This document shows, in pieces, positions 39,436-61,424 of a DNA stretch of 64,000 nt; the stretch's first letter is position 1, and every line of letters begins with the position of its first letter. The notes under the pieces were generated by a model. It searched no databases. It saw only the letters and a list, made by a program, of their open reading frames with translations, and had not been told where the DNA came from. Both the position numbers and the translations under genes were made by a program. The stretch comes from Taxillus chinensis (Eukaryota; Streptophyta; Magnoliopsida; Santalales; Loranthaceae). The stretch spans positions 27,787,543-27,851,542 of the forward strand of contig CM042092.1 of the NCBI GenBank assembly GCA_023512835.1. The letters run 5' to 3'.

Positions 39436-39467
39436 TCATGGCATAAAATAAGGAGTAGGAAAAACAC

Positions 39468-41781
39468 TTACCCCTGGTTTGGCACACTGTAATAGTAGAT
39501 GACATTGGCCACCATTCGTCGCACCTGAGCCACAAAGTCAGCCGACGTCTCGCCGCGCACTTCCCAATTTTCCTTCCCTTGCGAATACCCATCATGTAGT
39601 AGCAAACAAAGATCCCACAACTGAATTGGTCAGTCGTTGGGGAATTTGCATTTCATTGTAGTGAATAAGAGGGAGCTTGTCCGCCAATAAGCCTTCTTTG
39701 ATCATTGCCACTTTCATGCGTTTGATGAACCCATGCACTAACTGTCTTTTCCGTCTAGCAAACCCTTCGCCTTGGCTTGGATCATATAGCACAGCATGGC
39801 CTACATCCAGATTCACACGGACAAGTACATAGTGGCGGTCAATGTGCACCGGAATCGCACCCATGCATACCATGCCAAGGGCGGTGCCCTTCATTCTCTC
39901 CATTAATGCGTTGGCGCCACACCTCTTCGGACAAGGGTTGATTGAAAAGCTCACACAGGATGATGGAAGTGTACCCAGCTAAGGGGTAATTATGAGGCTC
40001 GGCCTCCACTACATACCGCATGGTCCTGCGAAGAGGTCTATCTCGTTGGCATAGAGATATTCATTCTCCGAGATCCTCTTCAAGCTAAAAGGAGTGAAGA
40101 TATCATTATCCCGTATAAATCGAGCCCTATGACCTGTGGAATTGATGAATTCTTCAAATGCCGCTTGGCTCTCTTCGACGATAAAGCTGGATTAATGATT
40201 AAATGAACAGGGAGGGCCAAGTAGATCTTCAGGGTTCAGCGGGCATGTATGCACCCCAAGATCCTGGAAGTATAGCAGGGCACCAGGGCCTGAGAATATG
40301 CAGGGATCCGTAAAAGGCTGGAAGGGTGAATACCCTGCTATCGGCGCCGCCTCCTCGGATGATAATGAGATGGGTGAGCTGAAGGTTCTTGTTGAGGTGG
40401 ATCTGCCTGGGTTGGATAAGCATCTTCGGGGGGATGGAGAGGGTTCTTCATCGATATCTCCACTATAGGAGAACGTTTTGATGCTTTCCTCTTGCTCAAA
40501 GCCTTCCGGTTTTTGCCTAGGAGGCCTTTGACTTCTTTGTTGTCCTTCCTCAGGGCTTCCACCTCGTGCTGGGTTCTGGCATTTGCCTCCCCGAGCTGCT
40601 GTGTTTCTTGCCTCCAAGCTTCGATAGATGCGGCAAGGAGGAGCCTGCTGGGGCCTCCCATGCTCTAGGTGATGCATGAGCGGCTACATCCGGGGCCTCC
40701 CATGCTCTGGTTCTAGGTTGTGAAGTAGCTTGTTGGTCTCCAGAGATGAGGGCCATTAATTCTTCAAATTGGGCATTAGTGATGTGCCCATTAGTGATCG
40801 CCCAATTGATGACCTCCACTTCACTCACCACCTGCCCACTAATGCCTTGAAAGAAATTGAAAATGTCTTCTTTGTGTACATTGAACCGCATGTACATGGC
40901 GGTGAGTCCGTATAGAGTCTGCTTCCTTTGATCCAAATGAGGAGAGGTCTCCCTTGCAAAGTCCGTGGATCGCTCCACATGAACACTGTGCCTAGCGGGC
41001 CGTGATGGAGGAGGAACATTGGTTGCCCAATGACCTCTCGGTATCGACCCCCAAACCTCCTTCACTTGCAATACTCTTAACACCCAGGTGAGAAGGAAAA
41101 GTAATGCTCTCCATGGAGGAAAAATGCAAAGCAGGCATGCTTTGAAATATCATACACAAAATTCTGCCATTGATCTGCTTGGATGAGTTTTTCTTCCACC
41201 AGATTAAAAATGGTAGTGGCCCAATCCACACTTAGCATATGATCAATGCTATACATGAACTCCAGGTGTGGCTTAGGCACACTATCTAGCCCACTGGTCC
41301 GAATCAATAAGCATTTCCCTACCAGGTAAGCTAGGCATCTAAATTTTCCAACAAAACCATTCTTGGTATACCGCCTTCGACTTTGAAATTTTCTAGCATA
41401 ATTACATGCGGTACCAAATTCTCCTAGGCTTAGGCGAGGGAAGCTACTACCTGGGTTCAGGGAGGTTAAAGCAATTTCTAATAATATCAGGGGTTATTCC
41501 GACATAAACCCCTTGCACAACCCCTATCAGGTTCATCCTCACTCCCAGAGCGGATGCATAGAAGTCTTGTAGGGCAGAATAAGAAATAGCTGGGTCGGCA
41601 GATACTAACCTTTGTAATCCCGAGTTTGAATTTTAACGACCACCTCTCTAGCCCAGCCCAGGCTCGAAGCCTCCAAAGCCTGCATGTCAAGAGCATGCCC
41701 CAAGAGTATCTCCTCCTCAGTTTGGCTATCAGCACTAGGTGAGTGCACCTCCTCCTGGCCAGTCCTCCTTGTGCGCACCAT
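39468..41781 (-). pseudogene. Athila third ORF: plant-transposon-like domain plus Ulp1-like C48 cysteine protease, frameshifted
   Basis: It occupies the envelope position after integrase. From an ATG at 41781 three frames are needed. The N-terminal part has VYVGITPDIIRNCFNLPEP (about 41490) and RTSGLDSVPKPHLEFMYSI (about 41270), resembling the 'putative plant transposon protein' family (PF20167, from memory). A Ser/Pro-rich linker follows. The C-terminal part reads as an Ulp1 fold: IDRHYVLVRVNL with His at 39832-39834, LYDPS with Asp at 39781-39783 (17 codons apart), Gln at 39637-39639, and FSCGIFVCYYM with Cys at 39617-39619. A 2-base shift separates Gln from Cys. The frame closes in VPNQG-stop at 39468. 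Ulp1 enzymes cleave SUMO or related modifiers; target here is unknown. Not translatable as one protein in this copy. Confidence 0.75.
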
Positions 41782-41904
41782 CTTTGGAATGAGAAAATAA
41801 GAACAAAGAGCAGAAAACTCAAGAGCAAGAGAGCAAAAGGGCGAGTTTCTCTAATACTCGGATCTGGAGTGATTTTGGTGTGGAAGCCTTTGAAGATGGC
41901 CTCC

Positions 41905-42420
41905 CTTTATATAGCGTGCAGAAGGAAAGAGGCTCCAATTGGCGTGATACACGTGCCCCTAACTTTTCGAGTGTTCGACCAAAATACCCTCTCGCACGTG
42001 AATTGGCTGAATTGGCGTGCAGGTCAGAATCGTCCCAAACTTTGGTGGTAGGTCCCCACTGAGCTGGCAAGCAATACTTCCTTCTGCACGTGAATTGTAG
42101 GAAGCTTCTAGGAGGGCTAAAATCGGTATTTTGCATTTTTGGGCCTCCATATGACAGCTATCAATTCGCGTGCAAGAGTAAACGTGATTCACATGGTCTT
42201 CATCTACCATTCCAGAAAGTTACAACTCAAAACAAGGTGCACGTGAATTGGGCAATTCACGTTCAAATTCACGTTCAGGCCCAAACTGGCCCAAATTTCT
42301 CCACCGAGTTGCTTATGCATTATGGACCATCTTTAAGTCTTGCACGTGAATTGTTTGAGCCCATCTTCAAGCACTTTTGGGCTTCACTTGCTCCTTGCTC
42401 CTTGACTTTGACTTTAAAAA
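41905..42420 (-). promoter_or_regulatory. Internal promoter candidate in front of the Athila third ORF
   Basis: The minus strand has TATATAAAG at 41905-41913, about 125 bp upstream of the ATG. Upstream lie five or more CACGTG cores (about 41951, 41994, 42087, 42239, 42344), several in CACGTGAATT or AATTCACGTG contexts. The layout mirrors the LTR promoters. Between 42421 and the pol stop at 42634 nothing else was seen. Confidence 0.6.
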
Positions 42421-42633
42421 TAATTCCACAAGTTCAGGACCCAAAAATTGCTCATCCTGCACATGGTTAGCTAAGAAAGGAACAAAGTCTCCTGCACAAT
42501 GGTTAGCTTGCAAACAAATTTATTGAAGAAAACAAATAAGAGAAAATAACATAAAATAAAACACAAGAATAAACATTGGGTTGCCTCCCAACCTGGCTTT
42601 ATTTAAAGTCCGTAGCTAGACTTTCAATGATGA

Positions 42634-44547
42634 TCATGCAATGGTGAAAGAGAGGGAATCAACTATCTCCCTCTGAGTTGAATCAAAGTAAGGTTTCAGC
42701 CTATTGCCATTCACCCAAAATTTCTTGCCATCTACAACTTGGAGCTCAAAGCTCCCATATGGCTTCTTATCAACTATCACAAAAGGTCCCATCCACTTGG
42801 ACCTTAATTTGCCAGGAAATAACCTCAACCTTGTGTTAAATAGAAGAACTTTCTGTCCTAAGGTTAAAGGTTCATTGTTGAGTTGCCTATCATGCCATTT
42901 CTTAGTTCTTGCTTTGTAAAATTTAGCACTATCATAGGCATCCAACCTAAGCTCATCTAACTCAATTAATTGAGTCATCCTAAGCTCCTTGATCTCTTGT
43001 GGGTTGAAATTTAACTTCTTCAAGGCCCAATGAGCCTTGTGTTCTAGTTCCACAGGCAAGTGACATGCCTTACCATATAGAATACGGTAAGGTGACATCC
43101 CAATGGGAGTTTTGTAAGTTGTCCTATATGCCCATAAGGCTTCATCAAGCCTTTGAGACCAATCTTTCCTATTAGCTCCAACAGTTTTCTCTAAAATGGC
43201 CTTAATCTCTCTGTTGGACACTTCTGCTTGTCCATTAGCTTGTGGGTGGTAAGCTAAAGACTTCCTATGAGTGACACCATACTTGTTCAATAATTTATCA
43301 AACAATTTATTGCAGAAATGACTACCCTCATCACTGATTATAGCCCTTGGTGTCCCAAAACGGCTAAAGATGTTCCTAGTAAGGAAGTGAGTCACAACTC
43401 TAGCATCATTCACTCTAGTAGGAATAGCTTCTACCCACTTAGACACATAATCCACAGCAAGCAAAATGTATGAATACCCATCAGAATTGGGGAAGGGCCC
43501 CATGAAGTCAATCCCCCAAATGTCAAAAATTTCAACTGGAAGAATTCCAGTTAATGGCATCTCATTTTTCCTAGATAGACCACCTACCCTTTGACATCTA
43601 TCACACTTTTTGATGTAGACATAGGTATCTTTCACCATGTGAGGCCAATAAAAGCCACACTGCATGATCTTAGCCACAGTTCTTTGCACCCCAAAGTGGC
43701 CCCCATAATGTGATGCATGACAATGATGAATTATGTCATCTACCTCCTCCTCAAGGACACACTTTCTTATGATTTGGTCTGGACACCTCCTATAAAGAAT
43801 TGGGTCTTCCCAAATGTATTTCCTAGCATCCACTACCAATTTCTTTCTCTGGTGGTAGTCTAACTGCTTGGGTATGAACCCAGTGGCTAAATAATTTGCT
43901 ATGTCAGCAAACCAAGGAAGAAAATGCACCTCAAACAACTTCTCATCAGGAAAGTCATCTACAATGGGTAGAGACTTAGGTGCATTCTCCACACGGGAGA
44001 GGTGATCAGCCACAGAATTTAGGGCTCCCTTTGTGTCTCTAATTTCAAGGTCAAATTCCTGTAAGAGGAGAACCCATCTAATCAAGCGTGGCTTAGCTTC
44101 TTTTTTCGCAAACAAATATTTCAATGCAGCATGATCAGTGTAAACAATGACTTTAGACCCCAAAAGGTAGGGTCTAAACTTGTTGCGACCATAAACCACG
44201 ACTAGCAACTCTTTCTCGGTGGTGGTATAGTTACGTTGAGCATCATCTAAGGTCTTACTAGCATAGTAAATGACCCTAAACACCTTTTCTCGCCTTTGCC
44301 CTAAGACTACCCCCACAAGATAATCACTCGCATCACACATTAGCTCAAAAGGCTGAGCCCGATCAGGTGTGACTATAACAGGTGCGATGACTAACTTACC
44401 CTTGAGGATGTTAAAAGCTTCTAAGCAATCTTCATTAAACTCAAAGCTTGTGTCTTTTCCTAACAACCTACTCATGGGTTTTGCAATTTTTGAGAAGTCC
44501 TTAATGAATCTCCTATAAAAGCCAGCATGGCCAAGGAAACTTCTCAC
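42634..44547 (-). CDS. pol: Athila RNase H-integrase (637 codons, open, 5' end set by a frameshift)
   Basis: The frame opens in the RT-RNase H connection ([20 protein letters not shown] region). RNase H follows with [15 protein letters not shown] and [10 protein letters not shown]. Integrase has the His/Cys zinc finger ([10 protein letters not shown] ... CDRCQ), then the core with acidic residues in [20 protein letters not shown] and [10 protein letters not shown], and a C-terminal part with SKWMGPFVI. Integrase joins cDNA to chromosomal DNA. The frame is uninterrupted for 637 codons, but in the element it should be fused to RT, which lies in another frame, so a natural product from this copy is doubtful. 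Confidence 0.85.
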
Positions 44548-46167
44548 TCCTTTTTCATTAGTTGGAGGTGGCGAGTCTCAATAGTGGAGATTTTTGCCTT
44601 GTCTACCTCCAAACCATGTGCGGACACCTTGTGCCCTAGAACTATCCCCTCTGTTACCATGAAATGGCATTTCTCCCAATTTAGGACTAGTTCCTTCTCC
44701 TCACATCTCTCTAAGACCACATCTAGATTTTTCAAGCACCGTTGGTAGGAGGAACCAAACACCGAGAAGTCATCCATGAAGACCTCCATGATCTCCTCAA
44801 CCAAACCCCGAAAAATAGCCATCATACACCTTTGAAAGGTGGCGGGGGGCATTACAAAGCCCAAATGGCATTCTCCTAAATGCAAATGTGCCAAAAGGGC
44901 ACGTGAAGGTGGTCTTTTCTTGGTCCTCGGGCTTAACCATGATCTGATTATACCCGGAATAGCCATCTAAAAAGCAGTAGTGACTATAGCCAGCTAACCT
45001 ATCCAACATTTGGTCAATGAAAGGAAGAGGAAAATGATCCTTCCTAGTGGCCTTGTTCAGCTTCCTATAGTCAACACACACTCTCCATCCCGTCACAGTG
45101 CGAGATGGGATCAATTCATTTTTCTCATTCTTAATCACGGTCATGCCCCCTTTCTTGGGCACAACATGCAATGGACTCACCCACTCACTATCTGAAATAG
45201 CATAAATTATACCCGCATTTTTCCATTTTAAAATTTCTTTTCTAACAACTTCTTTCATGGCAGGGTTTAATCTTCTTTGTCTTTCAAGATGGGTTTAAAA
45301 TCATCATTCATCAAAATCTTATGCATGCAAATCCCTGGACTAATACCCCTAATGTCTTCAATGTTCCATCCTAGGGCCTTTTTGTGTTTCCTAAGGACTT
45401 CTAACAATTGAGTACACTCCACATCATTCAAATTAGAAGCAACAATGACAGGGAATTGATTTGTAGAGTCTAGAAATTCATACCTTAGGTGTCCAGGCAG
45501 CTCCTTTAGTTCTGGAGCTGGATGCACGTCATCTTCTTTCTCCTCCTCAGCTTGCTCCAAAGAGTTTGTAGTTTGCTCATCTTTCTCAGCCGTCAAGTAC
45601 ATCTCTTCATCTTGTTGAGCTTCTATAAGCTGAAGGGTTTCATCATTGGTGGTGGTAATTTCTTCGCCAAGTAATCTTCCACCAATTCCTCAAGGTCTTC
45701 AACCCAAAGGCAATCCTCCTCCTCTTGACCTTGCAGAGCCTTCCCCATGTGGAAGACTAAGGTCTCCTCATTAATTCTCGAGTAAGCTGCCCTTGAGCAA
45801 CATCAATCAATGCACAACCCGTTCGGAAAACGGTCTTCCAAGGAGTAGCTTGAACTCCTCTATCTTCTTCCATCTCCAAAACAACAAAATCCGCTGGAAA
45901 TATGAAGGAGCCCACTTTAACTAGCACATCTTCAATGATCCCTTCAGGTCTTCCAGTGGACCGGTCTGCGAACTGCAATGATATGGAAGTGGGCTTCATG
46001 CCCTTAAGCCCAAGCTGCTTGTACAAAGCAAAGGAAATCAAATTGATGCTGGCCCCTAAATCACATAGGGCCTGCTGCTGCGGTGCATTGCCAATCACAC
46101 AAGGGAGATTAAAGCTGCCCGGATCTTTATGCTTGATGGGCAAACTCTGTTGAACAACACTGCTCAC
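44544..46167 (-). pseudogene. pol: Athila protease and reverse transcriptase, several frameshifts
   Basis: Protease lies at about 45757-46167, with ALCDLGASINLISF; the DLGAS form is usual for Athila. A linker with KKALGWNIEDIRGISPGICM follows (45267-45602). RT spans about 45258-44560: SPLHVVPKKGGMTV, WRVCVDYRKLNKATRKDHFP, FLDGYSGYNQI, then a frame change at a run of seven G (near 44855) before RCMMAIFRGLVEEIMEVFMD, with catalytic box FMDD at 44769-44780. Another frame change is near 44570 before RNase H. Other breaks occur near 45270. Sequence errors in homopolymers could explain some of these. Confidence 0.82.
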
Positions 46168-47883
46168 CTCTGTTGAACCCTCTGGTTCCTCAGCCTCTGA
46201 GGAAATGGCATAGTAGGCCTGAGCTCTTGCTTCTGTTCTTCAACTATTCTGTCTTGACTCAGCTGCTTGTCCTTCTTCTCTTGCACTTTTTCTTCAGCTT
46301 TATCTGATTTTCCTTGGTCATCAGCTTCCAAGGGTCTGCTTTGTTCTTCTGGAATTGCCTTCTTCTTAGGCTCTTCACTTCATTCAGTGTCTTCCCGCTC
46401 CTTAGAGTTATAGCCTTGCAACTCTCCTTGGGGTTCACCTCAGTGTCACTTGGAAAAGTATTGGTTGACACCCCTTGATTTACATTCTGTGCCATACTCA
46501 CAAGTAACTTCTCCATATTCTTAATTGAAGATTCTAGTGTGACTACCCTTTCCTCCAAATTATCCTCTCTTTTGGTTGGCTCATCCACATTCTGATATAC
46601 CCTTCCTCTTTGCTGTTGAGGCTGAGGCTGTTTCTGCTCGAATCCTGGAGGTGGGTGTAAATAATTATCCGTAGCATACGGATTCGCTTCATCCCTGGGG
46701 GGCACATATTTGTCTTGAAATGAGGTATCTCCCCCTCGGTTCTGAGTTCTCTGAAATGGTTGAGATTGCTGCTGATTCTGGTTGTACCCTAGCTGTTGTT
46801 GTTGAGGATAAAATTGCTGTTTCTGGTACAAGCCCTTTCCTCCAACATAATTTGCTTCTTCAGCTCCACTCCAGCCCTGCTCAACTACTGGTAAAGCTGG
46901 TGATCCTTCAACTTTAAGAGCCAATACTTCCATGCCTTTCACTAAAGCTTGAATCTGTGCTTGCACATCATTGGAAGAATTTTCAACTGAAGCAATCTTC
47001 TCCCTTGGCTTTGAAGTACGCACATTAGACCACTGCCAATCAGCTAATGACAACCTCTCCAAGAGCTCTGCTGCTCGTCAGGCTCTAGATTCATCAAGCA
47101 TCCTCCAGGAAATGCATTCACCTTGTCTTGTGAATGGGACCGAAGACCTGTGTAGAAAGATTCAATTTGAATCCACCTGGGGCCTTCCATGATCAGGGCA
47201 TCTTCTCACTAAGTCTTTGAAACGCTCCCAAGCTTCATGAAGAGTCTCCATCTCATCTTGCCTGAACCTCGCTAATCTCTCCTCTTAGCTGGATCACCTT
47301 GGAAGGAGGGAAGTACTTTGACATGAACTTGGTCCGCATCTCCTCCCAAGTGTTGATTGAACCTGTTGGCGGATTGTTGAACCAGCCAAGAGCTCTATCC
47401 CTTAAAGAGAAAGGGAAAAGCCTTAGCTTTATGGCCTCCTCCGACACATTGTTGATCTTGATGGTGTCACACACCTGGTAGAACCTCATCAAATGCTGGT
47501 GTGGATCATCCACGGCTGTTCCTCCAAACGCGTTGTTGCTCACCATGTTGATCAATGCCGGCTTTCGAAGCTATTCGCTTGGACTCTTGTCTGCCGAATC
47601 CCGAATAATGGTCCGACATCATCGGCCTCGCATAATCTAAGAAGGTTCAGGGCATAAACCTATTACCCTCTTCTTCTGGATATTGGCCATTGTAATTGGC
47701 CCCTCCTTGCGGTGCACCACCATCAGGTCCGAGATCTGCCATCGGATCGCCTACGGATTGCTCCAAGCCTTGTAGTGCTTCTTCCGCCTCACGTCTTGCT
47801 TCCCTAGTCGCTCTACGACGAGCTCTGAACAACCTTTCAAGTTCCCGCGTAAATTGTATATCCTCCTCTCTTTGCATGCACAA
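46168..47883 (-). pseudogene. gag: Athila gag, frameshifted
   Basis: A probable start lies at 47883 (MCMQREEDIQFTRELERLF), an arginine-rich N-terminus. The capsid segment at 47253-47555 is typical: FGGTAVDDPHQHLMRFYQVC, LFPFSLRDRALGWF and SINTWEEMRTKFMSKYFP. A Gln/Pro-rich region follows (46259-47062) with FPSDTEVNPKESCKAITLRS, the usual link to protease. At least three frame changes separate the parts. Gag packages element RNA in cytoplasmic particles. Confidence 0.82.
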
Positions 47884-48065
47884 CTAGGAATCCTTGATGT
47901 ATGTTCCTGTAAACAACAACAAGAACACACCCAGCGCTCCGAACAATGCAAAATAAACAAATAAAGAACACAAAATAATAGAAAATAAAAGACAAAATAA
48001 AACACCAAGATCGAATTCAAACAATTTCACTCAATGTTGATTTTAAAAACTAGTTAACCGTTGAA

Positions 48066-48083
48066 TCCCCGGCAACGGCGCCA
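48066..48083 (-). other. Primer binding site of Athila (tRNA-Asp)
   Basis: The minus strand reads TGGCGCCGTTGCCGGGGA three bases after the LTR end. This is the known Athila primer site complementary to tRNA-Asp. Confidence 0.92.
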
Positions 48084-48086
48084 ATT

Positions 48087-49599
48087 TGACAGACAAGATT
48101 TTTAGCCTCTCTAAAAGAGCTAGCTAGTGTCGTTAAATCTTTCTTCAAAATAATAAATTCCCTAAGTTTGCACTAAAAGAATAAGCGACAAAGAAAGGGG
48201 TCGAACCCACAGGGATTAACCTAGTTCTCTAGTTCTCAAATCAAATCACCCAATTACTCTTGTTCTATAAAATGTCTTGGCAAAAAGTTTTCTTTTTTTA
48301 AACTAAAGATCTAATTTTTATTTGGTTTTCTGAATAAACAAAGAAAGTAAACTGATTTTAGGATTAAGATTCAAGGATTAAAAGCATCTAGGGTCACAAT
48401 TTCACCTCCCTATGTTATCTCTACTGGTTCATGGTATTAGGGTTGTCCGATTGAAAACATGCTAAACATAAGCCAAGGACAACAAATGGTCATTGAGGTC
48501 CTTTTAAGAGTTGTATGCCAGAATGGTCATCTAAACACACAAACATGCAAAGCCAATAAATCATACTTGCAAAAGGATAATGATCACACCAATCACAAAT
48601 AAGTTATGAATCTCAATCCGCCCCAGACTAGGGCTAAGAATACCAAGGTGTACATCCAAAGATAGAATTAAGAACAGATTCATAAAACATGCAAAACTCA
48701 ATCATCCAAACCCAATATTCATAAACACAAAGAAACAACAAGGGGGCTACATTGCTCCCCTAGATTATAAGAACTACTCACGCATGATTACAAGCAAAAC
48801 CATAGCAGAAAAGCTCAACATCTTCTTCTTGATCACGCGCACAGCAAAGCTTCAAATCCAGGCTCCAAAATCCGCGACGGCTGCTGCGACGGCTGCTCTC
48901 CTAGGTCAAGGAGCACCTCCAAGTCGTGGAGCCTCTCTCTCTCTCTCTAAAACGTGTAGGGGGGTTAGGCATTGCTAGCAAGGGGCGTGGAGCTCTTATT
49001 TATAGAGTTTGGATGGGCTTTGAGGTGTGTAACCTAGCCCACTTATCAAAACGGCGTAGTTTTGATAAGTAACACTCGAAACATTAAAAACTCTATCTTC
49101 CATCCACAATTTGGACTTGGGCCTTCAGGAACAAATGATCAGCATGGAAAAACGATTGGATCGGTCCAAAAATATCTCTGCACGCCAATTTGCACGTGAT
49201 ATGGTGAATTCACGTGCACCTCCAAATCAGCTCAAACTTCTCCCCAAGCTTCCTTGCATCCTGTAGAGGCCTGAGAGGCAAAAATAGGCTTGCACGTGAT
49301 ATGGGTGAATTCACGTGCAACTCCAAATTAGCACCAAATGCTCTGAAATTTCTCTGGCAGGTAGAGGACATCATTCCAAGCAACTTTTCTTCTTGCACGC
49401 CAGTTGTTTGAGGCCATCTACTATGTCAAAAGTGAGGTCCAAAATCTGCCAAAACAGCTTAAAAGCACATGTATTTGCAACTAGCATCTTCCTAGGGGTT
49501 AGAGCAAATATATATGATATATGAAGCAATAAGGCTCTAATCATGCTCTTAAACATCCTAAATAAATACTAGAATAACGGCATAAAATGCACGGTATCA
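48087..49599 (-). repeat. 5' LTR of Athila (1,513 bp)
   Basis: Minus-strand ends are TGATACCGTGCATT (49599) and CTTGTCTGTCA (48087). TATAAATA (minus) is at 48997-49004, the ATCAAAAC/GTTTTGAT inverted repeat at 49045-49066, and CACGTG cores at about 49190-49320. It is nearly identical to 36393-37902. Confidence 0.95.
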
Positions 49600-49604
49600 A
49601 CCCC
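49600..49604. other. Target site duplication ACCCC, right of Athila
   Basis: It pairs with 36388-36392. Confidence 0.92.
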
Positions 49605-51179: not shown

Positions 51180-51510
51180 AGGGGTTGACCTTCGACCCGT
51201 TGACCCTTGACCTTCGAGGGTTGACCTTCAATCCTAAGATTAACCTTCGACCCTTGACTTTTGACCCGGAGATTAACCTTTGACCCTTTGCCCCTTGACC
51301 TTTGACCCTTGACCTTTGAGGTTTGACCTCTGACCCTGAGATTAACCTTTGACCCTTCGCTCCTTAACCTTCGAGAGTTGACCTTCAACCCTAAGATTAA
51401 CCTTCGACCATTCACCCCTTGACCTTCGACCCGTTGACCATTGACATTCGACCCACCGACCTTTGACTCTGCCGACACTTCGACCCTATTGACCTTTGAC
51501 TTTCGCTATT
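51180..51510 (+). promoter_or_regulatory. Dense TTGAC(C/T) array in the G LTR
   Basis: About 18 TTGACC or TTGACT motifs occur in 330 bp on the plus strand, mixed with TTCGACC units such as GTTGACCCTTGACCTTCGA. The array lies about 260 bp upstream of the TATA-like sequence at 51772. TTGAC(C/T) is the WRKY W-box core; function is inferred. Confidence 0.65.

Positions 51511-51955: not shown

Positions 51956-51958
<3 letters not shown>

Positions 51959-52003
<45 letters not shown>
51959..52003. repeat. (TC)n microsatellite
   Basis: About 22 uninterrupted TC dinucleotides in the 5' transcribed part of the G LTR. Shorter TC tracts lie at 51866-51892. Confidence 0.9.
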
Positions 52004-52008
<5 letters not shown>

Positions 52009-52543
52009 GTTTTCCAATCATAAAACAAAAAAAGAGGACAAATCCTCACCTGTCTCATTGCTTCAATCCCCAAAGAATTCCCATCCAAAACCAAAAAAGG
52101 GGGCCAACACAAATCCGTTCTCTTTTATCCCATCAATCCCCATCAAGTTCACAAAAAAGGGGCATTCCCCATAGTTCCTGCACGCAAGTCTCCATCATCT
52201 AGCCGTCCAAATTACAAGTCTCCATCGAATCGGGGAGGTACGTTACCAGTGCCGACAAGTGATCTTGGACATGGTGCCTCTACCGGAGTAGACTCACTCA
52301 CATCAGTTCATGTTTATTATGTTTGTTGTGTAGCTTTAGATTCGTTTTTCTTGCCGCATTTGTTTGTTTTCACTTTTATTATTTTATGTTGTAATGTGTA
52401 AGATGTAATATGTAAGGAAAAAAAACAACAAAAGGAGAGGGAAAGGGAGTGATTTAGTTTCGCCGTTGCACACACCACGCCATAGTTCCAATTGTTATTT
52501 CTTTTTTTTTAAACCTTAGTTTTAATTTCGTTGATCCAAGAAT

Positions 52544-52548
52544 AAATC
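52544..52548. other. Target site duplication AAATC, left of solo LTR E
   Basis: It is repeated at 54798-54802. Confidence 0.9.
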
Positions 52549-52950
52549 TGTAGAGACTCGTATTTGGGTAGTCTTGAGAGATAGCTATTCTATGAGAATG
52601 CAACTATCTAGACGGTAGTATAGCCCTCGACATGAGCATTTTGACAGTACTTGGGCCCGATTCCGGGTCGGGGCCCCGAGTGGCCCGATTGTAGACTTTC
52701 TCGAGTTTTATTGATTGAGCTTGCGTTCGAGCAGTCATTTGAGTATGAAAACATCTGGGCAGTGATGTGCTCGTCATTTTGAATGTTTTGACTATAATTG
52801 GGTTCAATTTGGAGTTCGTGACCTCGGGATGTCAATTATTGTTGAGAGGCCAATTATTGGCAGCAGTATAAATAATTAAGATAATTAAGAAACTATCTTA
52901 TTCATTTATTTTGCTTGGTGCGTGCGTGTTTGAGAGAGAGAGAGACAGAG

Positions 52951-52994
<44 letters not shown>

Positions 52995-54797
52995 AGAAGG
53001 TGAAGAGCTTCCTTTGGTGATTTGGGGCGATTGGAGCTCGTGGATCGCAAATAATCTTTCCAGGTAGGTGTCCTTGACCTTTTTATCTCGATCCTATATT
53101 TGGATATGTGTTATTGTGATCTGTGGTTATATAACTATGTATTTCATGAGGGTTGAGAAGTCAACCATGGAAATCTAGATTTAGATCTAGATGGATATAT
53201 GATTTGTGGGTCTTTCTATTGTTACCGTGCGATTTAGAGCCATTTAGGACACGTTTTGAGCTAGATATTGTAGCCTGTTGAGTAAAACGTGTGTTTGTGA
53301 GCATCTGGGGGTCACTGGGTTGATTCCAGACGAAGAACAGGCCAAATACGAGGATAAATAGTACCCTGGGCATACGCAAGAGTTAATAGTCCAGATCAGT
53401 AGTCCGGATCAGTTAGTCTGGATCAGTTAGTTCGGATCAGTAGTCCGGATCAGTAGTCCAAATTAGTAATCCAGATCAGTTAGTCCGAATCAATAATCCG
53501 GATCAGTAGTCTGGATGTGGCAGCAACAGTGGTCCGTAGCAGTGTTTCCGCAGCATCAATCCGCAACTTCAAACCGTAGCAGTGTTTCCGCAGCATCAAT
53601 CTGCAGCAGTGCAACTGCACTGCACTGGACTAGACCATTTACATTGTAACCATTAAGTCAAGTATTATACTTAAGTTACAATGTAAATAGCGAAATACCA
53701 CCCTTTCGGATTGAAAGAAAAATACTAGAAAAATATTAGAAAATTAAATTCTCACTCCTTCAAAATGTGAAAATTGGGATTTAGTGTAAAATCTCGGAAA
53801 AATTCAGTTTTTCGTAGAGGTGAATTTTTGGAAAGTGGGGTTAGACATCTTAGAAAAATCCTAAAAAATCAGATTATCTTAGTTATAATATGAAGACCCA
53901 ATGCCAGGACTTTTTATTTCAAGAAAACAACTTCTATGGGTATCTCCTTTCTTGGTCAAGGAATGATGACCGATTTGTGAAGACTGGCTTCAGTTATAAA
54001 GGGAGTATGGTGAACCTTAATGCCATATTGGTGTTGGTATGTTGGTTTGAGAAATTGAGGCTTAGGCTCTATGACTTGTTGGGTTCTTGCCGTGAGGCTA
54101 AGGCCTGTGTTGAGTCGTTGAGCTCGTGAAGCTAAGGCAGAGTGCCCTGAGCAGAGATCCTGTTGAGGATCGTGTTGAGCCGTTGAGCTCGTGGAGCTAG
54201 GGCTGAGTGCCATGAGCTGGGATCCCGTGGAGGATTGTGGACAAGCTGTCCTATGTGGGCAGGCTGGGTCCTGATGTTTGTTTGCAGGCCGAGTCCTGAC
54301 GATTTGTGTACACTACACGGTGCACGAGTACACTGAGCATATAGTATAAACTTATATGTTTGCATGATGTAGAGTTTTGGGGTCACTTACTGAGCATGTC
54401 GCCCACCCCTAATTGTTGTTTCCCTTTTTCAGGTGTAACCCGAGACTAGTGGAGGACTTTCTTTCAGGAGGACGTGCCCACTACTCTGATGTATAATACA
54501 GTATTGTATTCTGTATTGTTTTGTGTAATATCCCGGACATGGGCCCGTGGACAGTTGTATTTGAATACTGTTTGTGATGTGATGTCTATATGACTGTTTG
54601 ACTTATTGTATGCATGATGATATATGGAGAAGTACAGGATTACCCTTGATGTATGACTGTACAGGGTTGCATGATTGAGACAGCACCCGCGGTGTAGTCT
54701 CTATTGGTGCTAGTCACCAACCCCTTGGCCTTTCGGGTGCGGGCAAGGGGAAGTCATGTTCCTGGTTCCTGGTTCCCTGGAATTTGGGGGCGTGACA
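52549..54797 (+). repeat. Solo LTR E, Tekay-like (2,249 bp)
   Basis: It runs from TGTAGAGACTCGTATTTGGG to GGGGGCGTGACA and is homologous to solo LTR D. TATAAATA is at 52867-52874, followed by a (GA)n tract (52936-52990). A run of degenerate TCAGTAGTCCGGA repeats lies at 53390-53520. Perfect AAATC duplications flank it. Confidence 0.92.
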
Positions 54798-54802
54798 AAA
54801 TC
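54798..54802. other. Target site duplication AAATC, right of solo LTR E
   Basis: It pairs with 52544-52548. Confidence 0.9.
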
Positions 54803-55295
54803 GGTAAAAAAAAAAACAACAAAGATAAAAATAAAAAAAGGACATGACAAGACAAAACAAAAAAATGTAAAATAAAAAATCATAAAAAACACACAACATG
54901 TGATAACTCAATTACGGTCTATATTGTCAGCCGGGGTAGACCAATATTCGGAAAGGCAACAATCAAGTCTATCCCTCGGTAATAAGACCAATAATGAAAC
55001 AGTTCCATTAAACTGTTACGCATGGAACCAACATGTTTCTCAAAAATAAAAATACAAGAAAAGAGAGGAAGCAAAAAAAAAAAAAATAGAAACCTCCTCC
55101 TCCTAAGATAGGTACTGAAAGGGTGATGTAGGGGTGTTAATCCTTCCTTACACATAACCAACCCCCGAACCCTATCTCTGGTAATGTAGACCACCCGCAT
55201 TTTAGGTGACCAACTGCACCCCCAAAAACAGTTGGTGACGACTCTATACATTTCGTCCTTTGGTTGCGGCCCGGACGAAAACCAATGATGACAGC

Positions 55296-55313
55296 TGGCG
55301 ACTCTGCTGGGGA
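55296..55313 (+). other. Primer binding site of G (tRNA-Arg-like)
   Basis: TGGCGACTCTGCTGGGGA, two bases after the LTR end, identical to the M site at 8645-8662. Confidence 0.85.
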
Positions 55314-56270
55314 CAACACTTAAAGGGTTAGGCCTAATACTAGGATTGGGAGGTTTCCTTTTTTTGTTTTTACTTGGCTATTTTGTTTATTTATTTGTGA
55401 TAGTTGTGATTCATATGCTTTAACACCATGATAGTTATGATTTACTGCTTTCCATACCTGTTGCATTCACGTATAACCCTATACTCGGGTTTGGCACAAT
55501 TTAGGTTAGCGAGGTTTAGTACGGTACCTTGTGTGTTGATCATTATCCGCAATAGGGCCCTGGACTCCTCACTCAAGCTTGAGGTTCTTTTAAGGCTCGT
55601 CCTTTTAAGACCCCCCTCTGGTAAATCCCATGGTGTACGGAGCTCTTTACAAGAGGAAGTTTGGGAACGAATGAATATGATAGGTTTAGCAATAGAAGCC
55701 TATCAGGGGGGCATTGACCCACATGTTGTTTGCTCATTTTATGTCATGTTAACATTTGTTTTTTAGGGTAGTCCTTAAGTCATCCCTTGCACAAATGATT
55801 TGCCTTACTATTGGTTTATTATTTTATCCTGTCTATGTGCCTTGCTATTGCTATATACTATTTTACTTATCTCATTCTTTTGTGCTAATTCTGGCCTACG
55901 GTAAACTAACATCACTTTGTTACTTACTTACCATGTTCATTTCTTATTCTTAACATCCGTTATGGGCCCACGTAGGACACATGTTCTGTTCCATTCCACC
56001 CCACACACAGTCTTGGGTCACATAGACCACCTCAGTACTAGGTCTCCATTCATTCTCACCTAACATACGACATTATTCCACATTAGTCCATAGGTACCTG
56101 AAAGGTGCACCCTTATTCATACATTCACAACTTCATAACAATTTGCCCTCATGCATTGCAACACGTAGACAAGTAGATCCATGCGTGTATGCGTACTCAT
56201 TTACATGTTCATGCATACATGCATGTCAAAAACAAGCAAAATATAAGAGAAAAATAAAAAATAAACAATA
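55314..56270 (+). other. 5' untranslated leader of G
   Basis: The first 450 bases match the M leader (minus strand of 8150-8640). No ORF is supported before gag. Confidence 0.65.
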
Positions 56271-57193
56271 AAAAAAGAGCTTACCGCAGTCCACTTCTGC
56301 CACATCCAAGATTGCGCACCGATACAACCTCAGATCCCGACAGCAACAACTATCCACTTCAATGGTAGAACAAACAGAAAACAAATTTGCTAGTCTGGAG
56401 CAAGACCAACAAGAACTGCAAAATCAAATGAAGGCCATGATGGAAATGTTGACCAAGATGGCAGTAGACAAAGATAGGGGTCCCACTGAGATGGCCACTG
56501 ACCAGTCCCCAAGGCAAGCGTAAGGGGCAACAATGCCTCCCCACTTCATACCAGTACCCCCACAAGAGCTCAATCCATCAACATAAACCTTGGGCCTTCT
56601 CCTCAAGTCCAATTTACCTCATCGGCTCCGAGCAACATGGCCAAAGTGATGGGACTTCATGTACCTCAGAAGGGTGATCAGTCACTATCAATGAAGAAGC
56701 TCGAGGAAAGACTCAAAGCGATTGAAGGAACAAAGCTTATGGGATGATCAACTCCCAAGACTTGTACCTGGTGCCCGACATCATTCTGCCACCAAAATTT
56801 AAGGTACCAGACTTCGACAAGTTTAATGGGTCCCAGTGCCCAAAAACACACCTTACTATGTATTGTTGGAAGATCTAGTGATGACAAGCTCCTCATGCAT
56901 TGTTTCCAAGAAAGCTTGACTGGGGCACCACTTCGATGGTGCATTCAGCTGGAGGGAAGTCATATCAAGACTTGGAGAGACCTCGCAATAGCTTTCCTCA
57001 TACAAAACAAACACGTCACAGAATTGGAGCTGGACAGGTTGGCATTGCTAGCCTTTGAGAAAGGAGCTACTGAAAGCTTTAAAGTCTATGCGAGAAGATG
57101 GAGGGAGGCATCTACAAAAGTTCAACCCTCATTAACCGAAAGGGAGTTGACCACAATGTTTATCAAAACTTCGAAAGGGGTATACTATGAAAA
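56271..57193 (+). pseudogene. gag: gag of G (Tat type), 5' part, frameshifted and truncated
   Basis: The readable start includes IAHRYNLRSRQQQLSTSM and a coiled-coil-like stretch (ENKFASLEQDQQELQNQMKA, from 56362). A TAA stops this frame near 56521. After further frame changes the capsid core is clear at 56826-57190: LLMHCFQESLTGAPLRWCIQ, TWRDLAIAFLIQNKH and VYARRWREASTKVQPSLTER, typical of Tat Gag. The reading ends at YYEN, where the copia LTR begins. Knuckles and everything downstream are missing. Confidence 0.82.
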
Positions 57194-57520
57194 TGATGGT
57201 CCCTTGGAGCCTAGAGGGTGGGGGGGGGGGGGTGAATAGGCTCTTATTCAAACTCTTTTGTTCTCTTAAGGCACTGCATTAATCTAGTTAAGTGAAAGAA
57301 TCACTGCGGAAGATAACCAGATAGTAGAAGTATTTTGTTTTATTATCAAAAGATAATTACAACAAAATAGAAGCAACTCTCTTACACTCTGTTTTACAAA
57401 AAGGATTCACACACTAGCCTTGTTTGTATCTTTGAGCTCTTGTACATACGCAGGGTTGATCCCTCCCTTTTTTTTTTCGCTCTCTATCACACTCCTCTTT
57501 TTTTAAATATACAAGTATGA

Positions 57521-57529
57521 ATATTTATA
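57521..57529 (-). promoter_or_regulatory. TATA box of the copia LTR
   Basis: TATAAATAT on the minus strand, about 330 bp from the LTR end, downstream of the TTACTCCG array in transcription order. Confidence 0.55.
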
Positions 57530-57829
57530 CAACTATTCCTAAGAGACAACCTTGGAACTTGTAGTTCCGAAATGCGTTCAGCACTAACTATTCCTCGGTA
57601 ATCTCTCTGTCTTGACTGCTGCGGTTTGTGGAGCACAAGATCTTGGGTTTGAAGAGTATAAAAGCATTTGTGAGTTCCCAAATACAATTGAGATTGTGTC
57701 CACATATCCGGATGATCCACGTGTAAGATTCTTCAGGTTCTCAATAAGTTTGTCTTACATCGGGACGCCACGAGCTGATAACTTTGAATGCGGTGAGTTA
57801 AAGTAGTATCTTCTTGGTCCGGTGTAATT

Positions 57830-58345
57830 CTCCTTACTCCGTTGCTAATGAAGCTCGGAACCTTACTCCGTGTCAGTGGTTGCTTACTCCGTATTTATTT
57901 AGTACTGGAATCCTTAGTCTGTGTCAGCGCTTTCTTACTCCGCATGTAAGTTCCTTACTCCGTATGTAAGTTCCTTACTCCGTATGTAAGTTCCTTACAC
58001 CGGGCGAGTCTTGAAAAGTCTGATGACTTATTCCGTGTCAGCGCTTTCTTACTCCGCATGTAAGTTCCTTACTCCGGGCGAGTAAGATATCCGGATTCCT
58101 TACTCCGTGTGAATAAAGACTCGGATCCTTATTCTGCATCAATACTTCCTTACTCAGCATGTATGAAAGACTCGGACGCCTTACTCCGTGTCTTCTTCAC
58201 TTTAGTTCGCTTGAGGGGAAGACTTAACTATTTAACTCCATTTCAATCCTTTTGCTTCGTGCGACCTCGTTGACCAAGACTCTTACTCCGCACTTAGCCT
58301 TTAAGTTCTTAGTCCGTACGAATGTTCCTTATTCCGTATGTATTT
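57830..58345 (-). repeat. TTACTCCG (CGGAGTAA) repeat array in copia U3
   Basis: About 17 copies or near copies of TTACTCCG on the plus strand, often in the larger unit CCTTACTCCGTATGTAAGTT (three in tandem near 57950-58000). Spacing varies from 20 to 50 bp. The array sits upstream of the TATA box on the minus strand. Confidence 0.8.
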
Positions 58346-58549
58346 GTGACTTGATTATTTACCAAGTGTTTGACGACACTCACTCTTGTCCGGATCAGGA
58401 TTATGTATCCTGTCCTTAGCTTTGCTCTCACGAGTGCATCTCCGGATTAGTAACATATCTTCTGCAATGATCAAATAAACACAAAAGATCTCAGATCAAA
58501 TTACATAAGGCTTTATCAGCATTATCCAAATTCTGGGTTTGATCCAACA

Positions 58550-58562
58550 ATCTCCCCCAATT
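58550..58562 (-). other. Polypurine tract of the copia element
   Basis: The minus strand reads AATTGGGGGAGAT immediately before the LTR start. Confidence 0.85.
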
Positions 58563-58692
58563 ATGGATATGCCCAAACCCTTTGTAATCTGATCTGGTAA
58601 GCAATGCAAAAGAATAACATATAGAATACGCAACACAACTAATTTCATTGATCAGCAACTAAGTACAATTCAGCCTTAATACAAGATTTTCA

Positions 58693-61424
58693 CTAAGGTA
58701 CATAAGGCTTACTATACTTGAAGATCATAGTTGCTGCCTTCTCTCTAAGCTCCATTGTCTGCTTCATTGTATAAGTAGTGTGTTGGCTCCAAGATTTGTC
58801 CACAGTCAAAAACGACTTGATGAAGTAACAGACAAAAGCCCCGCAGCTATCTCCATCCGGCTGTTGTGGCACTTGCTTCTTGCCCTGGAATGTCTCCTTC
58901 AGCTTCTCAGTTGGGCCCAAGGGTGTGATGCCCAATTCTTCATATAAACGGGCTTTCTTCACAGCTTCAGTCAGCCTGATGCACAGTGGTTCCCATTGAT
59001 TCTTTCTTACAAGTGCTCCACTATCTGATGAGAATCAATGAGGATCATTTGCTTGGACTGAATCATAAAGACAGCCATCATGAAGTGTGGCGACATGATC
59101 CGGTACGGAATGAGGATAGTTGAGAGAGTTTTCCATGGCTTACTATCCTCAGCAGTTCCGTTGATGAAGGACTGAATTAGATCCACACTGGGAAGATAGC
59201 CTTCATTCCAACACGGCAAGACATCAAACAAATGCGCATCCTTGTAAAGAGATGGAAACAGCCTCATCTCCAACTTGGCAGCCCTTGAGAAGTTGTCAAT
59301 ATCTTCTGTTGTAAAGAGTCCTTTCTCCGAACAAAGAGTCTGAATGTCGTCCGGGGAGAAAGGGTACATTTCAGAAAGACATCTTCTCTCAGCAGAGGAC
59401 GCAGCAAAGGATTTCATTGCTTTGCGAACGCTTCCATCCGCATCAGAGGGGTCAAACTCCGCATATGATGGGAGGAAGATGTTGGCTGCGGATGAGGAGG
59501 ATGGAGGAGGAGCTGGAGCTGCGGTAGAGGAGCTTGGCTGAGAAAAGCGGCTTCGTTTGGGAATTTGAACTCCCTGAAGCACTGAAGAGGCACGCCGCTT
59601 CTCAGTCCGAGTAGATGGTTGTGGTGCAGCAGGAGCAGGATCAGATGACACGTTCTCCCCCGGTTTGGCAGATCGACGGGAAATAACGGGAGGACGAGCC
59701 ATCGTATGCGTCAGGTCCGCAAAAGAGGTAGACAAAGAATAGACGGACGAGGCGACTAGATCCATTTTCTGCTCCATGGAGGTGGAGGAGTCAGTGAGAG
59801 CAGAGAGGAGTTGAGCGCCAAGTGCATCAACCTTGGCGGCGATGGCGGAAATTTGGGCGCTGTGAGCCTGGGCGTGCCGGTCCAGCTGGGTGGAAAGCAC
59901 AGCGTCGGAGTGGACTGTGCCAAAAGAGGCACGCCCAAGGACTAACTCCAGAGCCTTGGAGGAGTCCCCCGCATGAACAGGAGCAGGAGTGCGCTAGGCA
60001 GAGGAGTCCGTAGGAGGATCAGCGGTAGCAGCAGCAGAAGGAGCGTCCGGAGCATCGGAGGCATCCGGGGCAGCTGACCCGCTTTGACCAGAAAGGTCAA
60101 CCACTGGAATGGCGGGGGCAGGAGAAGATGGGCCAGCCTTAGGCGGAGAAGGACCCCGGGCAGAAAGGACGGGACTGGTGGGAGTGGTGAACGCTACATC
60201 TGGAATGGAGGCCGGCGTAAGAAAGCCGTGATCCAAGTTCCAGATGATCATTTTCTCCGGGGATTGGGTATGGCGGGTGTAAAACACCCGGAGATCGTTG
60301 TCTGGAAGGGAGGCGGTGTGAGCAAGGCTAAAACGGAGCCAGAGGTTCGTTAAGGTGTCGGCGGAAAGATGGGCTAGGTAGTCTTGGGGTTGAGGTAGGG
60401 GAGGCAACGGAGCTTCCGGAGAAGAGATCGGGACATTAGCAGTTGCGGCAGCAACAACGGTATTAACCGCGGCAGCAATAGCGGAGGTGGAGGGAGTGGA
60501 GACATCCGCAGCAGAAGGGGCAGAGGAAACATCCTTTGGGGCACTGTGCTGAGATGGCCCCGCAACCTCGGACGGGTCGGCACAAACGCTGTGCTGGGAG
60601 GCCCGTGAGTGGGAAGGTGCAACAACAGACCGAATCCGGGAGGATCGGGGTGCAGAACTGACCTCGTGGGCTTGGCTGTCGGAGGGGTCACCAACAGTGC
60701 TGCCTTGTTGTTCCGAGGCAGGGAGAATGCGGAGAGCTACAGTGGGTCGGCGAGCGGTCATGTTCCCATCCGGCGTAAGGTAACGGAGGTAATAAGCCGA
60801 GGGAAACGAGACAGCCTCAAAACGGGCGAAATGGTCCGGATGTAGATGCCGGAAGACAATGCTGAGGATGCGCCCGAAGGAATAGTTTTTGGGACCATTC
60901 TGCAGCAAGCGAAATAAGAACATCCCCCAATCCATCGGAAGACCTTCAAAAACGCCGTACATGGCCAGGAGAAGATCGTACGGAACTGAGTCCAGGGCGG
61001 ATGTGCGATGCAGTAGACATCGACTTAGAATGGTCGCCATACATCGATAGCGACCCTGGAAGGATTTCACCTTGTATTCCTTCCCCTTGTTTGTGCAACC
61101 CATAGAAGCCGCCATTGGATCGGCATCCGGGCGCTGTGGTTCACCGGGGGGTAGGTGGAGAGCAGCGCGGAGAACGGCTGGAGTGATGATGATGGATTCT
61201 CCGCGGACATTGGAGATGATGGAGTTGGTGGTACAGCGAATCCGTTGGTAATACTCAATGATGTCGTCGATAAGAAGATCGACGGGATTGGAGACCAGAT
61301 TGAGTATATGTGAGGCTTCAAGGAGAGGGCGAATCTGGAAAAACCAATCCGGAGGATTGGAGACAGCGTTCCAATCAACCAGATGGCCAGGATTAACGCC
61401 GGAAAGGGAGATTCTGGGTGCCAT
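58693..61424 (-). pseudogene. Copia third ORF: plant-transposon-like domain plus Ulp1-like C48 cysteine protease
   Basis: From an ATG at 61424 one frame runs 805 codons to 59007, interrupted only by an amber codon at 59994-59996 (codon 477); the last part (to 58693) is in another frame. N-terminal residues 1-240 carry SIIITPAVLRAALHLPPGE and RTSALDSVPYDLLLAMYGV, matching the Athila third ORF. A Ser/Ala/Pro-rich linker follows, then a helical stretch (about 509-560) and a basic patch (IPKRSRF). The C-terminal part has SPHFMMAVFMI with His at 59085-59087 (codon 780), LIDS with Asp at 59034-59036 (codon 797), then in the shifted frame Gln 58861-58863 and GDSCGAFVCYF with Cys 58843-58845. His-Asp spacing 17 and Gln-Cys spacing 6 equal those I recall for yeast Ulp1. 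The usual Trp after His is Phe. It ends 130 bp before the PPT. Role unknown; deconjugation of SUMO-like modifiers is the family activity. Confidence 0.8.

What the first reader, a model, noticed from the sequence alone, without database searches (positions are those of the whole stretch)
39468..61424. Same two-domain accessory protein in two retrotransposon superfamilies
Seen: Athila (39468-41781) and copia (58693-61424) third ORFs share the order plant-transposon-like N-terminal domain, low-complexity linker, Ulp1-like C-terminal domain. Shared motifs are ITP(D/A)..R....LP and RTS.LDSVP. The two elements differ in superfamily, PBS, LTRs and pol. Inference: one accessory module moved horizontally between Ty3/gypsy and Ty1/copia elements, or was captured twice from the same source, and is kept because it helps the elements. 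This is the best candidate for an undescribed system in the window.
Basis: partly seen in the sequence, partly recalled or inferred. Interest (0 to 1): 0.92.

Follow-up and report, generated by a model that had tools for sequence, protein, structure and literature searches.

The report
Retrotransposon accessory gene with SUMO-protease-like domain
A plant copia-type jumping gene carries, besides its standard genes, a third gene for a protein ending in a SUMO-protease-like domain; its sequence seems to have been kept about as strictly as the element's own polymerase, and its front half is distantly related to the third gene of an unrelated gypsy-type element.

Summary
Partly confirmed. [quoted passage not shown] The N-terminal domains are homologous (profile E 6.4e-14; three collinear pieces). 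The copia C-terminus is a Ulp1 (Peptidase_C48) domain above Pfam's cut-off; the Athila one shows only the H-D-Q-C order over two frames, below cut-off, and the two Ulp1 domains are not detectably close. A shared N-domain is shown; one shared two-domain protein is not.

Both window copies are broken, but the genome holds many copia copies, some with ORF3 unbroken (about 911 aa). Among 19 copies omega is 0.18 (N), 0.17 (Ulp1), 0.34 (linker), like pol; catalytic residues are kept. Against slower noncoding DNA the constraint looks milder. Synonymous sites between copia and Athila are saturated, against recent transfer.

Best reading: a maintained accessory protein, N-domain as adaptor and Ulp1 as deSUMOylase against host control, working like VANC/KIU of VANDAL transposons. 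The mechanism is inferred. Ten text searches showed no plant LTR element with Ulp1; not every listed paper was opened.

The parts
36393..49599 (-). Complete Athila (Ty3/gypsy) insertion with TSD GGGGT; 3' LTR 36393-37902, 5' LTR 48087-49599
   Evidence: LTRs differ by 5 substitutions and 6 indel events over 1506 aligned sites (K 0.0033)
48066..48083 (-). Athila primer binding site, tRNA-Asp type (the tRNA assignment is recalled)
   Evidence: exact, none in 100 shuffles; lies next to the 5' LTR
42634..47570 (-). Athila gag-pol in several frame pieces (gag, weak aspartic protease match, RNase H, integrase)
41450..41632 (-). Athila ORF3 N-domain, first piece, ITPDIIRNCFNLPEP motif
   Evidence: score 49, 0 of 1000 shuffles, largest 48; E 0.4, collinear
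41080..41493 (-). Athila ORF3 N-domain core, RTSGLDSVP motif
   Evidence: 41% over 61 aa; 0 of 1000 shuffles; E 6.4e-14
40995..41231 (-). Athila ORF3 N-domain, end piece in another frame
   Evidence: E 6.1e-5, profile 171-222
40195..41083 (-). Athila ORF3 central part and low-complexity linker, several overlapping frames; the reading frame here is a judgement
39595..39978 (-). Athila Ulp1-like piece with the His and Asp (HYVLVRVNLDVGHAVLYD) and the IPQ motif
   Evidence: (PF02902 E 0.036, below cut-off)
39461..39640 (-). Athila Ulp1-like piece with the Cys box DQFSCGIFVC
   Evidence: 0 of 1000 shuffles against the copia Cys piece; not significant by profile
57194..58549 (-). Copia 3' LTR; the element runs on past the window end to window-equivalent about 70245
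   Evidence: 5' LTR in L031, 14 transitions and 6 transversions over 1311 aligned sites, K 0.0154; TSD TTTTC
58693..61424 (-). Copia ORF3, broken in this copy (TAG at 59994, frameshift near 59010-59034); about 911 aa where unbroken elsewhere in the genome
60705..61424 (-). Copia ORF3 N-domain (1-240), weak PF20167 match
   Evidence: (omega 0.182 for residues 1-235)
59400..60704 (-). Copia ORF3 Ser/Ala/Pro-rich linker (ends approximate) with bipartite NLS-like cluster KRRASSVLQGVQIPKRSR
   Evidence: 28 of 1000 shuffles of the piece; 37 of 500 shuffles of a whole unbroken ORF; linker composition; linker1 omega 0.337, linker2 0.223
58696..59360 (-). Copia Ulp1 (Peptidase_C48) domain: H, D (LIDS), Q (PQQ), C (DSCGAF)
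63104..63999 (-). C-terminal part of copia pol (RVT_2 match, then RNase H region, the latter by eye)

Best explanation
Copia ORF3 is a genuine accessory gene of an abundant copia family, not a captured fragment. It encodes about 911 aa: an N-terminal domain distantly related to the third ORF of Athila, a Ser/Ala/Pro linker with a nuclear-localisation-like cluster, and a Ulp1 cysteine-protease domain with all four catalytic residues kept. The N-domain has long been in both superfamilies; the split is too old for recent transfer. Most likely action (inferred): the N-domain brings the protein to element or host complexes, and the Ulp1 domain removes SUMO or a SUMO-like tag from host silencing or restriction factors (or from element proteins), so that the element is expressed or integrated more efficiently. 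It works like, but is not a member of, the VANC/KIU proteins of VANDAL Mutator elements. Shown: anatomy, element boundaries, N-domain homology, copia Ulp1 membership, purifying selection by codon tests. Inferred: catalysis, SUMO as substrate, nuclear site, target, effect on transposition.
For: Element boundaries and position. N-domain homology. Ulp1: above PF02902 cut-off; weak SENP1 match over the PQQ..D.CG.F.C box, E 0.011. Selection: omega 0.182 (0.134-0.244) N, 0.337 linker1, 0.223 linker2, 0.170 (0.127-0.236) Ulp1 in 19 copies; transversions alone, second positions over fourfold sites: 0.13 N, 0.21 Ulp1, 0.25 linker2, 0.32 linker1 against 0.17 and 0.21 in two pol pieces. Catalytic H 19 of 19, D 19 of 19, Q 18 of 19 and C 17 of 19 copies, the rest gaps. 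Abundance: 150 matches scored and listed, 89-100% identical, of 8965 first-look candidates. No transmembrane-like stretch in the unbroken copia ORF (19-residue hydropathy at most 1.47). Parallels read: Ulp1-bearing VANDALs, Ulp1 conserved in eudicots, with hypomethylation of their own kind (PMC13317346, passages); yeast Ty1 RNA rises when SUMOylation falls (PMC8585004, passages).
Against: No activity, substrate or localisation evidence. Fourfold sites diverge (0.166, sum) more than the element's own noncoding DNA: 0.086 between pol and ORF3, 0.050 in 140 nt after ORF3. Against these, second-position divergence (my division) is 0.44 and 0.76 for N, 0.43 and 0.75 for Ulp1, 0.74 and 1.28 for linker1, and 0.31-0.48 and 0.54-0.83 for the two pol pieces: milder constraint than omega suggests, though still in the range of pol for the two domains. 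The 18 fetched copies were picked for long open frames. In yeast, loss of Ulp1 derepressed Ty1, so the sign of a Ulp1 effect is not fixed. The NLS-like cluster turns up in 37 of 500 shuffles of the whole ORF. AlphaFold models were useless (mean pLDDT 34.5 and 36.9).
Confidence: 0.5

Rival explanations
1. Two separate stories: an old N-domain shared by both superfamilies, to which Ulp1 domains were added independently, as in Mutator, CACTA and Ginger elements. The likeness of architecture is then convergent.
For: N-domains match at E 6.4e-14, while the Ulp1 halves match only at E 1.3 by the same method. Ulp1 domains are found in several kinds of mobile element. In print, a sunflower Athila extra ORF of 487 aa has PF20167, and the word Ulp1 does not occur in that paper's main text.
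Against: Same domain order and position in both elements; the Cys boxes resemble each other (0 of 1000 shuffles); the Athila Ulp1 is too decayed here for a fair comparison.
Confidence: 0.4
2. One two-domain gene passed, long ago, between an Athila-type and a copia-type element (for example by template switching in a shared particle) and was kept in both.
For: Collinear N-domain homology, same order and same pol-to-LTR position; constraint in copia.
Against: Ulp1 halves not detectably close; direction and date unknown; no tree.
Confidence: 0.3
3. Recent horizontal transfer of the module between the two superfamilies.
For: Both elements are young insertions (K 0.0033 and 0.0154) in one genome.
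Against: pS 0.774 (saturated), third-position identity 0.32, protein identity 41% only in the best 61 aa.
Confidence: 0.03
4. ORF3 is an envelope-like gene, as third ORFs of Athila and some copia elements are called.
For: Position between pol and 3' LTR, sense orientation (PMC7264820, first part read). In Athila a strongly hydrophobic stretch (FALLLLSFLLFVLIF) lies in another frame at about 41790-41840, just before the presumed ATG; it was not tested and could belong to that protein.
Against: No transmembrane-like stretch in the pieces tested: 19-residue hydropathy at most 1.59 in 13 window pieces and 1.47 in an unbroken copia copy; a protease domain with kept catalytic residues.
Confidence: 0.05
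5. The Ulp1 domain is a maturation or deubiquitinating protease acting on element proteins (Gag, Pol or integrase) rather than on host silencing factors.
For: The wider family includes adenovirus-type processing proteases (weak Peptidase_C5 match, E 0.14) and deubiquitinases (weak Dub1 listing); the constraint is like that of pol.
Against: Copia elements already encode an aspartic protease (established knowledge); the best PDB match, weak, is SENP1.
Confidence: 0.25

Closest known systems
VANC / KIU proteins of VANDAL Mutator-like elements (Arabidopsis); Kaonashi Ulp1 MULEs
   Same: Extra protein of a plant mobile element; Ulp1 domain of unknown function, strongly conserved in eudicots (PMC13317346, passages); [quoted passage not shown]
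   Different: DNA transposon, not LTR; VANC has DUF1985 (PMC5735166, figure legend), not listed here by Pfam; anti-silencing reported there, not tested here.
Athila 3' extra ORF with PF20167 (sunflower Athila 14, 487 aa)
   Same: PF20167 similarity, sense strand, between pol and 3' LTR, predicted nuclear (PMC11728184, passages).
   Different: The word Ulp1 is absent from that paper's main text; gypsy only; 487 aa against about 911 aa.
Plant mobile domain (PMD) of Ty3/gypsy, MULE and host genes (MAIN, MAIL1)
   Same: One accessory domain found in unlike element classes: gypsy elements, and host copies captured by MULEs (PMC5418596, passages); genic forms sometimes fused to a protease (PMC7156037, passages).
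   Different: Different domain: no PMD listed for the N-domain at E <= 10; the word copia occurs in neither paper's main text.
CACTA elements of Chenopodium with Peptidase_C48 in ORF2; Ginger1 transposons with Ulp1
   Same: Ulp1 (PF02902) in a mobile element (PMC8978399, PMC2836005, passages).
   Different: DNA transposons; Peptidase_C48 alone or after Transposase_24 in CACTA, C-terminal in a gypsy-integrase-like transposase in Ginger1.
NeSL / Utopia non-LTR retrotransposons of nematodes with N-terminal Ulp1-like protease
   Same: Retrotransposon with Ulp1-like cysteine protease (PMC4640811, passages).
   Different: Non-LTR, animal, N-terminal in the RT protein rather than a separate third ORF.

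Membership tests
Peptidase_C48 / Ulp1 (PF02902) | Score above Pfam cut-off 20.7 bits | tested here: met
   Copia: 27.7 bits; 22.4 whole ORF and 25.5 domain of an unbroken copy. Athila: 14.3 bits, not met.
Peptidase_C48 / Ulp1 (PF02902) | Catalytic His, Asp, Gln, Cys | tested here: met
   Copia: H 19 of 19, D 19 of 19, Q 18 of 19, C 17 of 19, the rest gaps. Athila: the four letters occur in order over two frames, inconclusive.
Peptidase_C48 / Ulp1 (PF02902) | Cleaves SUMO or a related tag | not testable with these tools
   Needs protein
Transposase_32 (PF20167) | Score above cut-off 45 bits | tested here: not met
   Copia N 17.3 and 19.3 bits, 19.6 and 22.6 bits in an unbroken copy; not listed for two Athila N-domain pieces at E <= 10. 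A possible distant relative, not filed as a member.
Ty1/copia LTR retrotransposon | RVT_2 pol, paired LTRs, 5-bp TSD, PBS, PPT | tested here: met
   the Sirevirus lineage is recalled from pol motifs and was not tested
Athila (Ty3/gypsy) | RNase H before integrase, paired LTRs, TSD, tRNA-Asp-type PBS | tested here: met
   the listed pol relatives that bear names are plant proteins or unnamed hypothetical ones; the lineage name rests on the PBS and recalled features
VANC / KIU of VANDAL MULEs | DUF1985 and Mutator element | tested here: not met
   No DUF1985 listed at E <= 10; the element is copia
VANC / KIU of VANDAL MULEs | Causes loss of methylation of its own element family | not testable with these tools
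   No expression or methylation data
Envelope-like third ORF | Transmembrane segment | tested here: not met
   Copia, and the Athila pieces tested. Athila as a whole inconclusive: a hydrophobic stretch before its ATG in another frame was not tested.
Plant mobile domain | Pfam PMD match | tested here: not met
   none listed

The most novel reading that the evidence does not exclude
Plant LTR retrotransposons of both superfamilies carry a long-maintained deSUMOylase accessory gene, N-domain plus Ulp1, that has passed between Ty3/gypsy and Ty1/copia elements and counters SUMO-dependent host control: an LTR-element counterpart of the VANC anti-silencing proteins.
Probability: 0.15. Interest if true: 0.85.

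Novelty: new variant of a known kind. Interest (0 to 1): 0.6.

Why it matters
What the extra genes of plant LTR retrotransposons do is an open question (PMC7264820, first part read; PMC11728184, passages). Here one has a recognisable enzyme domain with kept catalytic residues, shows codon constraint like pol, and is abundant. That makes a biochemical test of an accessory ORF possible, and points to the SUMO pathway as a place where an LTR element may act on its host, as has been suggested for DNA transposons with Ulp1 or OTU domains (PMC2836005, passages).

Tried and rejected
Recent horizontal transfer: rejected by saturated synonymous sites. A shared central domain: 63 of 3000 shuffles, not upheld by profile; dropped. 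An own promoter for copia ORF3: a TATA[AT]A lies within 140 nt upstream in 5 of the 17 copies that had the ATG anchor (18 scanned); dropped. Athila ORF3 decaying before the last insertion: about 8 frame changes in 2.3 kb against 6 in 5.0 kb of gag-pol (hand counts; binomial P 0.042), but 4.6 expected from LTR indels (P 0.093); inconclusive, so the parent may have been unbroken. AlphaFold too poor for fold search; none run. Protein database: no relative of copia ORF3 N, although Athila pol found 7962 relatives there (120 listed, those with an organism name from plants), so plants are held; the search needs exact five-residue words, so relatives at 40% identity would be missed. Viral contigs: nothing confirmed in 3 scans. 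NCBIfam: nothing of use. Athila ORF3 dN/dS, Ulp1 and N-domain trees: not done.

Papers: 10 searches; 15 papers opened, seen as passages, except PMC7264820 (first of three parts) and PMC7156037 (abstract and passages). Many listed papers were not opened. Supplements not read. The 2011 survey of extra ORFs in plant gypsy elements (Steinbauerova) was seen only as a citation and may hold more.

Full report
WHAT IS THERE. The window is plant DNA (plant-type LTR elements, pol relatives in plants); in the held assembly (520.9 Mb, 264 contigs) it is C9:27787543-27851542. Two LTR elements lie on the - strand. The first, 36393-49599, is a gypsy element of Athila type: LTRs 36393-37902 and 48087-49599, TSD GGGGT, PBS at 48066-48083, gag, weak protease match, RNase H and integrase. 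Its LTRs differ by 3 transitions, 2 transversions and 6 indel events over 1506 aligned sites (K 0.0033; 0.13-0.24 My with recalled plant rates). The second is a Ty1/copia element (RVT_2). Only its 3' part is in the window; its 5' LTR was found in a fetched stretch crossing the window end, with PBS TGGTATCAGAGC and TSD TTTTC on both sides. It spans about 13 kb from 57194; LTR K 0.0154, 0.6-1.1 My. ORF3 is therefore inside each element, between pol and 3' LTR.

THE TWO ORF3s. Copia ORF3 starts with ATG at 61424 and ends at 58693; here it has one stop (59994) and one frameshift. Elsewhere in the genome unbroken frames exist: 6 of the 150 listed copies have an open frame of 900 aa or more, one of them with a TGA noted inside the match, and among 18 fetched copies two read through to the same C-terminal end. 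Athila ORF3 is in pieces over all three frames from 41781 to 39461.

HOMOLOGY. The N-domains are related: tblastn E 1.2e-15 over three collinear stretches (filters off), 0 of 1000 shuffles for each of two pieces, profile E 6.4e-14, 6.1e-5 and 0.4 among 1253 window ORFs. PF20167 matches copia N at 17.3-22.6 bits against a cut-off of 45, and is not listed for the two Athila N-domain pieces scanned. The copia Ulp1 is good (27.7 bits, cut-off 20.7). The Athila Ulp1 is below cut-off (14.3 bits) and is recognised by motif order; against the copia Ulp1 profile it is not significant (E 1.3). The two Cys boxes align better than 1000 shuffles, the His halves do not (125 of 1000 shuffles reach the score).

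AGE OF THE SPLIT. Over 116 aligned codons pS is 0.774 and pN 0.498; identity by codon position is 0.45, 0.53 and 0.32. The alignment was chosen by protein similarity, which favours low pN, but saturation at synonymous sites does not depend on that. The two N-domains parted long before either insertion.

SELECTION. Nineteen copia copies were compared: the window copy and 18 of the 150 listed, picked for long open frames. Mean pairwise omega is 0.182 in the N-domain, 0.337 and 0.223 in the two linker parts, 0.170 in Ulp1, 0.227 overall. Since methylated elements lose cytosines by transition, the test was repeated on transversions only: second-position over fourfold ratios are 0.13 (N), 0.32 (linker1), 0.25 (linker2) and 0.21 (Ulp1), against 0.17 and 0.21 for two pol pieces in 17 and 18 of the 19 copies. 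The catalytic His and Asp are present in 19 of 19, Gln in 18 of 19 and Cys in 17 of 19, the rest gaps. Results that temper this: the noncoding stretch between pol and ORF3 diverges by 0.086 and the 140 nt after ORF3 by 0.050 (18 copies each), less than fourfold sites (0.166). Against these two, second positions run at 0.44 and 0.76 (N), 0.43 and 0.75 (Ulp1), 0.74 and 1.28 (linker1), 0.31-0.48 and 0.54-0.83 (two pol pieces) (my division). If noncoding DNA is the fair yardstick, the constraint is modest in the domains and doubtful in the first linker part; if it is itself constrained, omega stands. On either yardstick the two domains rank within or near pol.

HOW IT MAY WORK. The linker holds a bipartite basic cluster (28 of 1000 shuffles of that piece; 37 of 500 shuffles of the whole ORF). 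No membrane-like segment was seen in the copia ORF or in the Athila pieces tested; an untested hydrophobic stretch lies in another frame just before the Athila ATG. A soluble, perhaps nuclear, adaptor-plus-deSUMOylase fits the copia protein best. The nearest working parallel is VANC/KIU of VANDAL elements (PMC13317346 and PMC5735166, passages). In yeast, Ty1 RNA rises when SUMO conjugation or Ulp1 anchoring fails (PMC8585004, passages); that shows that the SUMO pathway governs an LTR element, but also that the direction of a Ulp1 effect cannot be assumed. An acting deSUMOylase is inferred, not shown.

PRINT. PF20167 in an Athila extra ORF is known (PMC11728184). Ulp1 in Mutator, CACTA, Ginger and nematode non-LTR elements is known (PMC13317346, PMC8978399, PMC2836005, PMC4640811; all passages). 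The listings of searches, and the 15 papers opened in part, showed no plant LTR element with a Ulp1 accessory gene. Many listed papers were not opened, and the library holds only open-licence papers, so this is not proof of novelty.

LIMITS. Athila copies elsewhere, host ULP genes and Mutator elements could not be searched: the genome search answered once in 31 attempts. The species is unknown. The copia lineage (Sirevirus) is recalled from pol motifs only.

Noticed in passing
window 9863-11168, + strand orientation: A further LTR of the same Athila family, inverted, 93.6% identical to the 3' LTR; no tRNA-Asp-type PBS beside it and only chance-level ORF3 matches near it, perhaps a solo LTR.
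   Followed up: partly
window about 41790-41840, - strand: Strongly hydrophobic stretch (FALLLLSFLLFVLIF) in a different frame just before the presumed Athila ORF3 ATG; a possible membrane or signal segment, or chance in a pyrimidine-rich leader.
   Followed up: no
window 62384-62421 / 62788-62825: Inverted repeat of 38 nt, 82% complementary, in the 1.7 kb between copia pol and ORF3.
   Followed up: no
window 62529-62555, 62645-62671 and 58551-58560: CTCCCCCGTAGAT-type repeats (purine tract CGGGGGAG on the - strand) twice between pol and ORF3, besides the tract at the 3' LTR; recalled as like the multiple purine tracts of Sireviruses.
   Followed up: partly
window 57862-58163: Tandem CGGAGTAAGGAACTTACAT-like repeats in the copia LTR; the two LTRs differ in length.
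   Followed up: no
window 51185-51432: Minisatellite-like TTGACCTTCGACCC repeats; ORFs of similar repeat look at 12215-12962.
   Followed up: no
copia noncoding stretches, 18 copies: Noncoding parts (0.086 between pol and ORF3, 0.050 after ORF3) diverge less than fourfold sites of ORF3 (0.166): constrained, or a slower mutation rate; unexplained.
   Followed up: partly
window 15784-21589 (+) and 29014-31680 (-): Long gypsy-like gag-pol reading frames by eye (485, 177, 777, 267 and 624, 263 aa), with only chance-level ORF3 matches near them.
   Followed up: no
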